Source: Methanotrichaceae archaeon (GTDB taxonomy: Archaea; Halobacteriota; Methanosarcinia; Methanotrichales; Methanotrichaceae). Taken from it: 64,000 nt of DNA. Under the pieces are notes generated by a model. The model ran no database searches and had not been told where the DNA came from. It saw only the letters and a list, made by a program, of their open reading frames with translations. Below are positions 20,387-57,644 of this stretch, piece after piece. The stretch is from the NCBI GenBank assembly GCA_016927425.1, contig JAFGMR010000007.1, forward strand, positions 1 to 64,000. The letters run 5' to 3'. A program made the position numbers and the translations under genes. The stretch's first letter is position 1, and every line of letters begins with the position of its first letter.

Positions 20387-20572
20387 ATGTCGGAAGATAG
20401 ACCGCGTCGCAAGTTGGTAGTTTCGAACGCAGCCATCCCCTTCGTCGCAAGGGGAGGGCGCATCTTTGGCCGGCAGCTGATGGATGCCGATCTCGATATT
20501 CGGGATGGGGAACGGGTGCTGGTCACGGATAGGATGGACCATACATTGGCCGTTGCACGGGCAGTCCTCTGA
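20387..20572 (+). CDS. stand-alone PUA domain protein
   Basis: 61 aa. SNAAIPFVARGGRIFGRQL, DADLDIRDGERVLVTD and TLAVARAVL match the PUA fold found at the C-terminus of archaeal TgtA/ArcS tRNA-modifying enzymes, where it grips the tRNA acceptor end. There is no catalytic part, so it is either a trans-acting RNA-binding subunit or a domain relic. A run of 12 T follows the gene, then the CRISPR repeats. Confidence 0.8.
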   Translation: MSEDRPRRKLVVSNAAIPFVARGGRIFGRQLMDADLDIRDGERVLVTDRMDHTLAVARAVL

Positions 20573-20587
20573 AGGCTGCCCGGAATC

Positions 20588-20599
20588 TTTTTTTTTTTT
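20588..20599 (+). terminator. poly-T terminator after the PUA gene
   Basis: Twelve consecutive T, 15 bases after the PUA stop. Runs of T on the non-template strand are the standard intrinsic terminator in archaea. It also lies 25 bases before the first CRISPR repeat, so it would insulate the array from upstream transcription. Confidence 0.7.
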
Positions 20600-20624
20600 G
20601 ACTTGATCTAGGGTATGTCCTTTG

Positions 20625-20878
20625 GCAGCCATGGCCGCAAGGCCGTGGCCCCATTGAAGCACTATATCGGGATCGAACTTGTGGAGGAGTATGTCGAGTC
20701 TCCATGGCCGCAAGGCCGTGGCCCCATTGAAGCAAAACATTGCCCTCTCTTAGCCAAATAGAATTATTTGCGTCTCCATGGCCGCAAGGCCGTGGCCCCA
20801 TTGAAGCGGTTACGTTGGTGGCTGCTCCCGCCGTCTTTGCAAGTCTCCATGGCCGAAAGGCCGTGGCCCCATTGAAGC
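20625..20878 (+). CRISPR. orphan CRISPR array, 4 repeats and 3 spacers
   Basis: 36-bp repeats at 20625-20660, 20698-20733, 20772-20807 and 20843-20878; spacers of 37, 38 and 35 bp. The repeat starts GTCTCCATGGCCGCAAGGCC and ends GTGGCCCCATTGAAGC, the ATTGAA(R)C 3' end typical of many archaeal arrays, suggesting plus-strand transcription. Repeat 1 is altered in its first six bases; repeat 4 has one change (GCAA to GAAA) in the hairpin loop. No leader and no cas genes in the window. It overlaps the 3' end of the neighbouring ABC ATPase frame. Confidence 0.92.
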
Positions 20879-21777
20879 CTGGCGCTGGATTTGAGCGGCA
20901 CCTTGGATATCAATATGTCCTCAGGCCGGACCGATGCGAAGACCTTAACCCCGGCCGTCCCGCAATCGTTCCCGCCTTCGTCTCCGTCGCCTGCCGCTGC
21001 TGAGACGATCCTCAAGCCATCGACCTCGATCTCCATCAGACCTTGGTTCCTTGAGGCGGCGCCCTTGAAGACGTTCTCGACTCCGACGAAGTTTGCGATC
21101 ATCTCGCATTTGGGCCTTCTGAAGACCTCCTCCGGGGTTCCAACCTGGACGATCTCGCCCTCGTTCATCACCGCCACCCTGTCGGCTAGGGAGAACACCT
21201 CCTCGAAGTTGTGGGTGACGTGTATTATCGTCGTCCCGTATACCTTGTGTATCCTCTTTAGCTCTCGCCTGAGCCTCTCTCGCGTCAGGCCGTCGAGGGC
21301 GCTCAGGGGCTCGTCGAGGAGCATCACCGCAGGCTCCATGACGATCGCCCTTGCTATCGCTACCCTCTGCTGCTCCCCTCCGCTCAACGTCACCGGCCGC
21401 CTACTGTGGAGGTGCGAGATTCCCAGGAGCTCAGAGGCCTCCTCTACCTTCTTTTCGATCTTGCCAGGTGATGTCTTCCTCGACCTAAGGCCGAAGGCTA
21501 TGTTCTCCTTGACTGAGAGGTGGGGAAAGAGCATGTAGTCCTGGTAGACCATGCAGACGTTTCGCATCCTCGACACCTCCCCCGTGATCTCCCGCCCATT
21601 GAGGAAGATCCTCCCTTCGTCGGGAGCGTAAATCCCGGCAATGGTCTCCATGAGGATCGTCTTTCCGGAGCCAGTAGGGCCGATTATGACGAGATACTCG
21701 CCATCTCCAACCTCTAGGGAGATATCCCTCAAGGCGAATTCGCCCAGATCTACGGAGATATTCTCTATCTTCAGCAT
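20764..21777 (-). CDS. wtpC: tungstate/molybdate ABC transporter ATPase, C-terminus replaced by CRISPR sequence
   Basis: Powers oxyanion import with the permease and binding protein upstream. Walker A GPTGSGKT, Q-loop MVYQDYMLF, signature LSGGEQQRVAIA, Walker B VMLLDEPLSALD and switch HVTHN are intact. The following regulatory TOBE-type region starts normally (FVGVENVF, VFASVRPEDILISKVPLKSSAR) but breaks off: the last 37 or so codons are read from CRISPR repeat 4, spacer 3 and repeat 3 (LQWGHGL, FNGATALRPW). About 45 residues of the oxyanion-sensing half are thus missing, while the ATPase core is complete. Start is the ATG ending at 21777 (MLKIENISV). Whether wtp-, mod- or tup-type cannot be fixed by eye. 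Confidence 0.85.
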   Translation of the reverse strand: MLKIENISVDLGEFALRDISLEVGDGEYLVIIGPTGSGKTILMETIAGIYAPDEGRIFLNGREITGEVSRMRNVCMVYQDYMLFPHLSVKENIAFGLRSRKTSPGKIEKKVEEASELLGISHLHSRRPVTLSGGEQQRVAIARAIVMEPAVMLLDEPLSALDGLTRERLRRELKRIHKVYGTTIIHVTHNFEEVFSLADRVAVMNEGEIVQVGTPEEVFRRPKCEMIANFVGVENVFKGAASRNQGLMEIEVDGLRIVSAAAGDGDEGGNDCGTAGVKVFASVRPEDILISKVPLKSSARLQWGHGLSAMETCKDGGSSHQRNRFNGATALRPWRRK

Positions 21778-21896: not shown

Positions 21897-22601
21897 CTAA
21901 AGGCGAAGTCCTCCAACGCGCCGCTCGAAGACGTAAAGGGAGAATATCGAGATCATTATCAGGATTGTCGCAACCGCTATGGCCTCGTCGAGCTTTCCGC
22001 AGGACATGTTCAGGAAGAGGGATGTGGGTAGCGTCTCGGTCTTCATCCTCGTTGCTCCCGCGAGCATCAGGACCGCCCCGAACTCGCCGATCCCCTTCGA
22101 CCAGGTGATCACGGACCCTGCGATAAGGCCGTTTGTGGCCATGGGGAGCGTCACCCTCCAGAGGGCCTGGGCATCGGAGCACCCCAGGGTCTTCGCGACG
22201 TGCTCGTACCTGGGGCTGATCCCCTCGAAGGTCGACCTCATAACCCTCACCATGAATGGCATGTTCACGAAAAACTGGGCGACCACGATCCCTAGCGGCG
22301 TGAATACGAAGACGAGCCCAGCTTCTGCGAGATCCCTTCCAGGAATGCTCACGCCGAAGAAGAGGAGAAGGCCGACTCCTGCTACAAGCGGCGGAAGGGC
22401 AAGGGGCATGTCTAGAAGGGTGTTTGCCACGGTCTTTCCAAAAAAATCGTAACGAGCAAGGGCGTAGGCAGCCGGGACTGCGACTGCGAGGCAGAGGATT
22501 GTCGAGGCCAACGAGGTCTTGAGGCTGAGAGCGATTGCGAACTGGATCTCCTCGGATCGAAGCGCTGCTAGAAGGGCCTCTGGAGGCGAGTGGCTAACCA
22601 C
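21897..22601 (-). CDS. wtpB: tungstate/molybdate ABC transporter permease, start unclear
   Basis: Membrane subunit with the EAA-type loop (FEGISPRYEHVAKTLGCSD then LPMATNGLIAG), GxGEFGAVLM and about five TM segments. As listed it begins with GTG at 22601, but the frame stays open for another 90 bases upstream and there encodes a convincing first TM helix (TIGASLVLATFISTVLFLV) lacking any ATG, GTG or TTG start; the gene probably begins there, overlapping the TrmO-family gene, with an unusual codon such as the CTG after AGAGG near 22690. A tract of some 12 C separates it from wtpC. Confidence 0.85.
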   Translation of the reverse strand: MVSHSPPEALLAALRSEEIQFAIALSLKTSLASTILCLAVAVPAAYALARYDFFGKTVANTLLDMPLALPPLVAGVGLLLFFGVSIPGRDLAEAGLVFVFTPLGIVVAQFFVNMPFMVRVMRSTFEGISPRYEHVAKTLGCSDAQALWRVTLPMATNGLIAGSVITWSKGIGEFGAVLMLAGATRMKTETLPTSLFLNMSCGKLDEAIAVATILIMISIFSLYVFERRVGGLRL

Positions 22602-22687: not shown

Positions 22688-23209
22688 TCAGCCTCTTATG
22701 CCCCCTTCATCGAGCCTTCTCGGCGTTATCCCGATTGAGCCTTCGACTCCCTTTCCATCCACCCATCCGCTCCTCGAATCCTCTCTCCGGTCGAACTCCC
22801 TGACGTAGGGCTTGACGTCTAAAAGGAGAGTCCCGTCAAGGACGTCGAGCCCCCGAACCTTGAGGACGCTTCCCCTCACCTCCTGCAGCTCGACTATCGA
22901 CAGACCAATGGGCGTCGGCCTGTTGAAGTGGCGCGTAGCGAAGATGCCGTGCTCCACGTCGTCGAGGAAGGGCTTTCTAATGAGGTCGAAGCCCGTTGCC
23001 CGATGAAAGTGGTAAAGGAGGATCAAGTGGGAGAAGGACTCGATGTCCTTCAGCCCTGGAGCATACTCGGGAAAGATCTCAACCTCCCCCTCAGAGGGGC
23101 TGAAGGCCGACTGTATCGGCGTGTCCTCCTTGTCTATGTATTCCGAGCGAATGATTCCAATCGGCTTGTAGATGATCTCTGCCAGCTTGGGCCCCTTCAT
23201 CTCCTCCAT
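22688..23209 (-). CDS. TrmO/TsaA-family protein (YaeB-like) inside the transporter operon
   Basis: 173 aa. IGIIRSEY near the start, then PEYAPGLKDIESFSHLILLYHFHRA and IFATRHFNRPTPIGLSIVELQEV are the signatures of the family that N6-methylates t6A37 in tRNA using SAM through an unusual beta-barrel fold. It sits between the binding protein and permease genes of a Mo/W transporter, 3 bases after the former. Homologues recur beside Mo genes in archaea, so a cofactor-linked methylation rather than tRNA modification is possible; function here is inferred. Confidence 0.82.
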   Translation of the reverse strand: MEEMKGPKLAEIIYKPIGIIRSEYIDKEDTPIQSAFSPSEGEVEIFPEYAPGLKDIESFSHLILLYHFHRATGFDLIRKPFLDDVEHGIFATRHFNRPTPIGLSIVELQEVRGSVLKVRGLDVLDGTLLLDVKPYVREFDRREDSRSGWVDGKGVEGSIGITPRRLDEGGIRG

Positions 23210-23211
23210 TA

Positions 23212-24021
23212 CTAGACCGCCTCCGCGCTTTCTCCTTGGCTTTCGAGATAGCTTTCTTCTTCAGGATCCAGACAGGTGGCAAATCCGTAGTCGGCAAAGA
23301 CCGCCTTGCCCTCATCTGAAGCGACGAAGTTCATGAACTCAAGGGCGATCTCCTTCTTTTCGGAGAACGCGAGAGTTCCTATGGGGACGATATCGATCTC
23401 GTTTATCTCTTGCGATATCTCGACCTTCTCCATCGTATCGGGGTTGTAGAGATCCTCCCAGTCGATTGCAGCATCGGCCTGCCCCATCGAGATGTAGACC
23501 AAGAGCTCGTTGGCAGTTCCCGAGAAGGCGATGACGTTTCTCTCTACCTCCTCCCAGATCCCCAAGCTCTCCAGCATGTTCTTCGAGTTCTTTCCGATCG
23601 CCGGACCCTCAGGGTCGCCGAGGACTACGCTTACGTCGGGCTTCGCGAGATCCTCGATTGATTCGATCCCGGCTGGATTTCCCTTTGGGGTGATGATGCA
23701 GGGGACGTGGTAGACGACATCTGTTGCCTCGTCGACGAAGCCCTTCACGATCGCCGATTCGATGTAAGACCTCGCCCCGGGCATGTAGAGATCGCCGGTC
23801 TGGTACAGCTCGATCTGGGAGAGGAGCTGGGCCGACCCGCCAAAGGTGTACTGGATCTCTACCTCCTCCCTCTCCTCGAATATGTCGGAGATCGCCTCCA
23901 TCGGCTCCCTCAATCCTGCGCCGCAATAAACGAGAAGCGAATCCTCAGCAGCGGAGACGGAGACCATGAGGCTCGCCGCCAAGATCGATCCGATCACGAT
24001 TGATATGGCTCTGCGATTCAT
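23212..24021 (-). CDS. wtpA: tungstate/molybdate ABC transporter substrate-binding protein
   Basis: 269 aa, signal peptide to about residue 25 (SLMVSVSAAED; the small residues indicate secretion, no lipobox Cys). The mature part is ModA/WtpA-type: LLVYCGAGLREPME, TFGGSAQLLSQIE, ITPKGNPAGIESIEDL, FSGTANELLVYISMGQADAAIDWED. First gene of the operon wtpA-trmO-like-wtpB-wtpC. It could bind molybdate, tungstate or sulfate-like anions; the Mo/W reading is favoured by moaB and mop in the window. Confidence 0.85.
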   Translation of the reverse strand: MNRRAISIVIGSILAASLMVSVSAAEDSLLVYCGAGLREPMEAISDIFEEREEVEIQYTFGGSAQLLSQIELYQTGDLYMPGARSYIESAIVKGFVDEATDVVYHVPCIITPKGNPAGIESIEDLAKPDVSVVLGDPEGPAIGKNSKNMLESLGIWEEVERNVIAFSGTANELLVYISMGQADAAIDWEDLYNPDTMEKVEISQEINEIDIVPIGTLAFSEKKEIALEFMNFVASDEGKAVFADYGFATCLDPEEESYLESQGESAEAV

Positions 24022-57434: not shown

Positions 57435-57644
57435 GTGAAGATAAGTGCCAGAAATATGCTCAAAGGCAAGGTCAAAGGAATTATCAAAGGGCCGGTGAAC
57501 GCTGAAGTATCGGTAGAGCTTCCCGGTGGAGAGGTCCTTGTCTCTATCATAACCAGTAAATCCGTAGAAAACCTTGAGCTTGCTGAGGGAAAAAACGTCT
57601 ACTTGGCAATAAAGGCCACCAATGTGATGATCGCCATAGACTGA
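57435..57644 (+). CDS. mop: molybdenum-pterin/oxyanion-binding protein Mop
   Basis: 69 aa single TOBE (Mop) domain: SARNMLKGKVKGIIKGPVNAEV and VSIITSKSVENLELAEGK then VYLAIKATNVMIAID. Hexameric Mop binds molybdate or tungstate and buffers them. Starts GTG with GGAGGA nine bases upstream; a TATA box TTTATATT lies at 57381-57388 and the leader is short. It carries exactly the domain half lost from the transporter ATPase, so may compensate. Confidence 0.92.
   Translation: MKISARNMLKGKVKGIIKGPVNAEVSVELPGGEVLVSIITSKSVENLELAEGKNVYLAIKATNVMIAID

What the first reader, a model, noticed from the sequence alone, without database searches (positions are those of the whole stretch)
20764..21777. CRISPR array has replaced the 3' end of a transporter ATPase gene
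The ABC ATPase reads normally up to VPLKSSAR and then continues without a stop through CRISPR repeat 4, spacer 3 and into repeat 3, so its last ~37 residues are CRISPR-encoded. The oxyanion-sensing TOBE half of the domain is missing and the ATPase core is intact. This implies that the array, or a deletion beside it, joined onto a gene and that its product may have lost substrate feedback.
Basis: partly seen in the sequence, partly recalled or inferred. Interest (0 to 1): 0.78.

Follow-up and report, generated by a model that had tools for sequence, protein, structure and literature searches.

The report
Transporter gene tail lost to CRISPR array
In this methane-producing archaeon, the gene for the motor of a molybdate/tungstate importer runs straight into a leftover CRISPR array and has lost the domain that normally senses the metal and shuts the importer off; it is a real but probably accidental rearrangement.

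Summary
Confirmed: the minus-strand wtpC-type ATPase gene (21777..20764) is native for codons 1-300 (…VPLKSSAR). It then reads 37 codons through CRISPR repeat 4, spacer 3 and repeat 3, stopping 5 nt into spacer 2. Intact homologues from four family genomes carry 59 further residues after SSAR, matched by the TOBE domain model. That tail is absent from the 99.2%-complete assembly. AlphaFold gives a well-folded ATPase core, a disordered array-encoded tail and a weakened remaining regulatory half; an intact homologue folds the whole domain well. Core dN/dS (0.17-0.19) resembles that of intact pairs, and this operon holds the genome's only ModA-family gene. Most likely it is an active importer without substrate feedback, but that is inferred. 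The array is an orphan remnant: sense strand +, convergent with the gene; no family leader; first repeat damaged; no cas1 or RAMP gene found. The join is exact at the repeat edge. A solo copy of this repeat type abuts another gene's stop codon in the same relative orientation. How the join formed is unknown; rearrangement is the simplest reading, and assembly error is unlikely but not excluded without reads.

The parts
20878..21777 (-). native part of the wtpC/modC-type ATPase gene, codons 1-300 (ABC ATPase domain plus first half of the regulatory domain)
   Evidence: PF00005 E 1.8e-35; NCBIfam WtpC 384.6 bits over model 1-291/347; 77-84% identical to family homologues
20764..20877 (-). array-encoded C-terminus: 37 residues LQWGHGLSAMET...RRK plus stop TAA
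   Evidence: translation; AlphaFold pLDDT below 50, no secondary structure
20878..20879 (.). junction between the repeat edge and the wtpC coding sequence, 1 bp microhomology (G)
   Evidence: DNA comparison with four family homologues
20625..20660 (+). CRISPR repeat 1, leader-side; first bases GTCT changed to GCAG
20661..20697 (+). spacer 1 (37 nt)
20698..20733 (+). CRISPR repeat 2
20734..20771 (+). spacer 2 (38 nt)
20772..20807 (+). CRISPR repeat 3
20808..20842 (+). spacer 3 (35 nt)
20843..20878 (+). CRISPR repeat 4 (loop GCAA to GAAA), abuts wtpC
   Evidence: fold
20558..20600 (+). terminator-like hairpin and T-run of the neighbouring PUA gene, leaving about 24 bp before repeat 1 where a leader would sit
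   Evidence: no match to family leaders
21897..22601 (-). wtpB/modB permease
   Evidence: TIGR01581 over cut-off
22688..23209 (-). trmO (tRNA methyltransferase O) between modA and the permease
   Evidence: TIGR00104 over cut-off
23212..24021 (-). modA substrate-binding protein, the only ModA-family gene found in the assembly
   Evidence: TIGR01256 over cut-off

Best explanation
A genome rearrangement joined the 3'-side edge of an old, leaderless CRISPR array to codon 300 of the only molybdate/tungstate-importer ATPase gene found in this Methanotrichaceae archaeon, and the last 59 codons were lost. The gene now ends by chance, reading antisense through two repeats and a spacer. The ATPase core should still power the importer, as in A. 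fulgidus ModC, which has no regulatory domain. Oxyanion binding at the C-terminal regulatory dimer, which inhibits the M. acetivorans homologue, should be lost, so uptake would not be feedback-inhibited. Shown: the join, the lost tail, its absence from the assembly, a core under ordinary constraint on average, and orphan features of the array. Inferred: the rearrangement mechanism, retained transport and lost feedback.
For: Intact homologues from four family genomes share the 59-aa tail right after SSAR, and Pfam TOBE maps to it (L042 304-365, L041 311-372). DNA similarity with relatives runs up to the repeat edge and then stops. The tail is absent from the assembly. wtpC pairwise dN/dS is 0.17-0.19 against 0.14-0.20 between intact homologues. 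modA and the permease are intact and this is the only ModA-family hit in the genome. In the model of the window protein the ATPase core has pLDDT mostly above 90, the residual regulatory half 42-70, and the array tail 23-46 without secondary structure; the intact control has the regulatory domain at 86-95 apart from one linker. The nearest solved structure over the regulatory part is 3D31; 2ONK (240 aa) shows a ModC without that domain. Trans-inhibition by the C-terminal domain of M. acetivorans ModC is reviewed in PMC10710835. Orphan array: no family leader, first repeat damaged, no cas1 and no RAMP. Flanking genes are scattered in closed relative G010 (HIT at 387 kb, PUA at 70 kb, wtpC at 2,501 kb).
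Against: No read data, so a chimeric join cannot be formally excluded. No sister genome in the genus, so the event cannot be dated; ordinary dN/dS would also be seen in a freshly broken gene. The join falls exactly on a repeat edge, which a random break would do only a few percent of the time. TupA-type and other oxyanion importers were not sought.
Confidence: 0.6

Rival explanations
1. Recent pseudogene: the truncated ATPase is non-functional or degraded, and the operon is on its way out.
For: Half of a conserved two-part regulatory domain is gone and the remaining half is predicted to be destabilised (against control). A recent break would not yet show in dN/dS.
Against: No frameshift or stop in wtpC, wtpB or modA, ordinary dN/dS, and no second ModA-family importer in a methanogen that should need Mo or W (general knowledge). 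A natural regulatory-domain-free ModC exists (2ONK).
Confidence: 0.17
2. Assembly artefact: a chimeric contig joined a wtpC end to an array at a repeat.
For: The join lies exactly at a repeat edge and the genome is in 94 contigs, several of which end in or near arrays.
Against: A jump between repeat copies needs wtpC to border a repeat copy already. The true wtpC tail should then survive on another contig, and it is absent at 99.2% completeness. Repeat 4 carries a private base, and the contig continues about 20 kb to one side and 54 kb to the other.
Confidence: 0.1
3. Different route to the same state, array-born insertion: a repeat or short array was inserted inside wtpC (clean repeat edge at codon 300), and a later deletion on the leader side, cutting into repeat 1, removed the leader and the wtpC tail. 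(This competes only with the mechanism step of the best explanation, not with the rest of it.)
For: One clean edge (20878) and one ragged edge (repeat 1, GTCT to GCAG), no leader and no tail are explained by one insertion plus one deletion. A solo copy of the same repeat type abuts an SDR gene's stop codon exactly, in the same relative orientation.
Against: Clean trailer-side repeat edges are seen in some ordinary arrays (L135, L133). No empty-site comparison is available, no mechanism is known to me for inserting whole repeats ectopically, and no cas1 was found.
Confidence: 0.2
4. Adaptive capture: loss of feedback, or the array on the wtp transcript, was selected (constitutive Mo/W uptake, or antisense control of the array).
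For: The gene stays open and constrained on average; wtp transcription would read antisense through the array.
Against: No functional data and no cas1 or RAMP found to use the array; read-through is expected by chance, since the three frames run 22-92 codons.
Confidence: 0.05

Closest known systems
Methanosarcina acetivorans ModC (PDB 3D31)
   Same: Best solved relative of this gene and of its intact homologues; the intact homologue aligns over its whole length
   Different: 3D31 has a complete C-terminal regulatory domain that binds oxyanion; here the alignment stops at 3D31 residue 288 of 348
Archaeoglobus fulgidus ModC (PDB 2ONK, 240 aa)
   Same: A molybdate/tungstate importer ATPase without the regulatory domain
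   Different: It lacks the whole domain; here half of the domain plus a random 37-residue tail remains
Orphan CRISPR arrays (no cas genes nearby)
   Same: Short array of near-identical 36-nt repeats, no leader, no cas1 or RAMP found in the assembly
   Different: One edge is fused in frame to a conserved gene and supplies its C-terminus
Ectopic CRISPR repeats / CreTA (PMC9458426)
   Same: Repeats outside ordinary arrays, including one solo repeat in this genome
   Different: CreTA repeats are degenerate, one or two in number and tied to a cas locus; here there are four near-identical repeats and no cas1 found

Membership tests
WtpC/ModC oxyanion-importer ATPase | ABC ATPase core with Walker A, signature, Walker B and H-loop motifs | tested here: met
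   GPTGSGKT, LSGGEQQ, VMLLDEP and HVTH in the sequence; PF00005 E 1.8e-35
WtpC/ModC oxyanion-importer ATPase | Score above the NCBIfam WtpC cut-off (440 bits) | tested here: not met
   384.6 bits, matching model 1-291 of 347; intact homologues score 446 and 455. The shortfall reflects the missing tail
WtpC/ModC oxyanion-importer ATPase | C-terminal TOBE regulatory domain | tested here: not met
   No TOBE hit in the window protein; present in homologues
WtpC/ModC oxyanion-importer ATPase | Operon with ModA-type binding protein and ModB-type permease | tested here: met
   the same modA-permease-ATPase order in relatives
CRISPR array | Regularly spaced near-identical repeats with unique spacers | tested here: met
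   four 36-nt repeats, spacers 37, 38 and 35 nt
CRISPR array | Leader next to the first repeat | tested here: not met
   most leaders inspected upstream of family arrays are clearly related to each other; the window flank scores within the range of shuffles against them
CRISPR array | cas genes in the genome | tested here: not met
   no PF01867, no PF03787; other cas families not searched
CRISPR array | Spacers matching viruses or plasmids | tested here: inconclusive
   no hits in phages or, with synonymous-codon patterns in one frame each, in viral contigs
CreTA / ectopic regulatory repeat | One or two degenerate repeats linked to a cas locus | tested here: not met
   four repeats with 92-100% identity to the reference copy; no cas1 in the genome

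The most novel reading that the evidence does not exclude
This repeat type can be placed as whole units at ectopic sites next to gene 3' ends, with its crRNA-handle end facing the gene. Two of two ectopic sites in this genome (wtpC at 20878; the SDR gene on contig C48) show an exact repeat edge abutting a coding sequence in the same orientation, which would point to an unrecognised way of spreading CRISPR repeats that can reshape host proteins.
Probability: 0.1. Interest if true: 0.72.

Novelty: new variant of a known kind. Interest (0 to 1): 0.42.

Why it matters
It is a natural domain-deletion allele: an oxyanion importer ATPase from which genome rearrangement removed the TOBE part of the trans-inhibition domain, while the rest of the operon stayed intact in a methanogen that appears to depend on it. 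If transport is retained, it gives a test in a natural allele of whether trans-inhibition is dispensable. It also shows that debris of orphan CRISPR arrays can supply coding sequence and reshape a conserved protein, and that gene callers will report such hybrid C-termini.

Tried and rejected
Looking for the lost tail downstream of the array or elsewhere: absent; the only hit is a stand-alone Mop at 33% identity. Sister genomes in the genus: none held. Gene order in relatives as a guide to the ancestral state: the flanking genes are scattered, so uninformative. CRISPR arrays near wtpC in relatives: none found. Protospacers: none found in phages or viral contigs and none convincing on the contigs checked. 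A degenerate leader left of repeat 1: not supported. 'No stop' as evidence of selection: rejected, since all three frames run at least 22 codons. 'Intact last repeat proves a broken trailer': rejected, since some ordinary arrays end in intact repeats. An empty site for the solo repeat on C48: the downstream sequence is not conserved among relatives, so it could not be judged. Literature on CRISPR arrays fused to genes: the searches gave no matching case among the titles and abstracts listed, but subscription journals are mostly missing from that library.

Full report
Check of the observation. The minus strand from 21777 encodes an ABC ATPase starting MLKIENIS, aligned with the starts of its relatives. 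The last native residue is R300 of VPLKSSAR, whose codon ends at 20878, the outer base of CRISPR repeat 4. The frame continues through R4, S3 and R3 and stops at 20766-20764, five bases into S2, adding 37 residues. The array has four 36-nt repeats at 92-100% identity to the reference copy. Running on without a stop is expected: the three frames run 22, 37 and 92 codons.

What was lost. The intact homologues inspected (L036-L039, L041, L042; L041 has the same protein as L038 and L042 the same as L036, so four distinct sequences) continue after SSAR with a conserved 59-residue tail ending in FKATAVHIF/HVF; the other WtpC-type homologues aligned in A1 also have such a tail. Pfam TOBE matches 304-365 of L042 and 311-372 of L041, i.e. 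it starts at the SSAR motif; the window protein has no TOBE hit. It scores 384.6 bits against the NCBIfam WtpC model (cut-off 440), matching to model position 291 of 347, whereas intact homologues score 446-455. Against PDB 3D31 (M. acetivorans ModC) the intact homologue aligns to residue 346, the window protein only to 288. A search of the host assembly (2.3 Mb, 99.24% complete, 0% contamination) with the tail finds only a distant stand-alone Mop protein on the same contig. DNA of the window and of relative G014 is near-identical just before the join (AATCCAGCGCCAGG) and unrelated after it.

State of the protein. Pairwise dN/dS of wtpC against relatives is 0.17-0.19, in the range of intact pairs (0.14-0.20); wtpB and modA are likewise constrained (three array-encoded codons were included in the wtpC columns). 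AlphaFold with 15 sequences gives the ATPase core pLDDT mostly above 90, the remaining regulatory half 42-70, and the array-encoded tail 23-46 without secondary structure. The control, the intact homologue L041 with the same relatives, folds its whole regulatory domain at 86-95 except one low-confidence linker. Foldseek puts 3D31 first and also finds 2ONK, a 240-aa ModC without the domain, at TM-score 0.91 over the target. So the core is probably sound and the regulatory domain is not. That the C-terminal domain of M. acetivorans ModC mediates inhibition by molybdate/tungstate is established (reviewed in PMC10710835); its loss here is inferred to remove feedback. The operon holds the only ModA-family gene found; other importer families were not sought.

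The array. The repeat ends in ATTGAAGC on the + strand, folds as a better hairpin on that strand, and most family arrays read in that orientation carry a shared leader directly before their first repeat. The sense strand is therefore +, convergent with wtpC, and the gene reads the array antisense. There is no leader here: the PUA gene's terminator-like hairpin and T-run end about 24 bp before repeat 1, the flank scores against family leaders within the range of shuffles, and repeat 1 differs in its leader-side bases (GTCT to GCAG). No cas1 and no RAMP gene was found. Other arrays in this genome (C65, C76/C55) have a different repeat. Apart from this array, the window's repeat type occurs once, as a solo repeat on C48 whose edge shares the G of an intact SDR gene's TAG stop.

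How it formed. The order PUA-array-wtpC is not seen in relatives: in closed relative G010 these neighbours are far apart, so the join sits at a synteny break, though gene order in this region is generally not conserved. Either a break joined the array edge to wtpC, or a repeat-bearing segment entered wtpC and a later leader-side deletion took the leader and the tail. The exact repeat edge and the damaged first repeat lean mildly towards the second; the first needs no special mechanism. A chimeric assembly is unlikely because the true tail is missing from the rest of the assembly and because jumping between repeats would need wtpC to border a repeat anyway, but only reads can settle it.

Verdict. 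Loss of feedback is plausible and untested. It is a new variant of a known kind of event (domain loss by rearrangement), with an unusual partner. The confidence given for the best explanation covers the join being real, the core being active and the feedback being lost; the join alone I hold at about 0.9.

Noticed in passing
L121:6293-6328 (contig C48 of the host genome): A solo copy of the same CRISPR repeat type abuts the stop codon of a complete SDR gene; the G of TAG is the first base of the repeat, in the same relative orientation as at wtpC.
   Followed up: partly
window 57435-57644 (+): Stand-alone molbindin/Mop protein (TIGR00638 E 5.2e-25, PF03459), the same domain family as the one lost from WtpC, 36 kb away on the same contig.
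   Followed up: partly
window 22688-23209 (-): trmO lies between modA and the permease gene; the same arrangement occurs in locus L043 (Euryarchaeota archaeon BL5_bin.5).
   Followed up: no
L129:15836-16387, L193:9935-10771, L194:481-516: Arrays with a second repeat type and recognisable leader in a genome where neither cas1 nor RAMP genes were found.
   Followed up: partly
L197, L198, L203, L207, L208, L211, L215: Scattered single CRISPR repeats, some with a leader-like sequence, in other Methanotrichaceae genomes.
   Followed up: partly
window 20387-20572 (+): Stand-alone 61-aa PUA-domain gene next to the array; conserved in the family, at other positions.
   Followed up: partly
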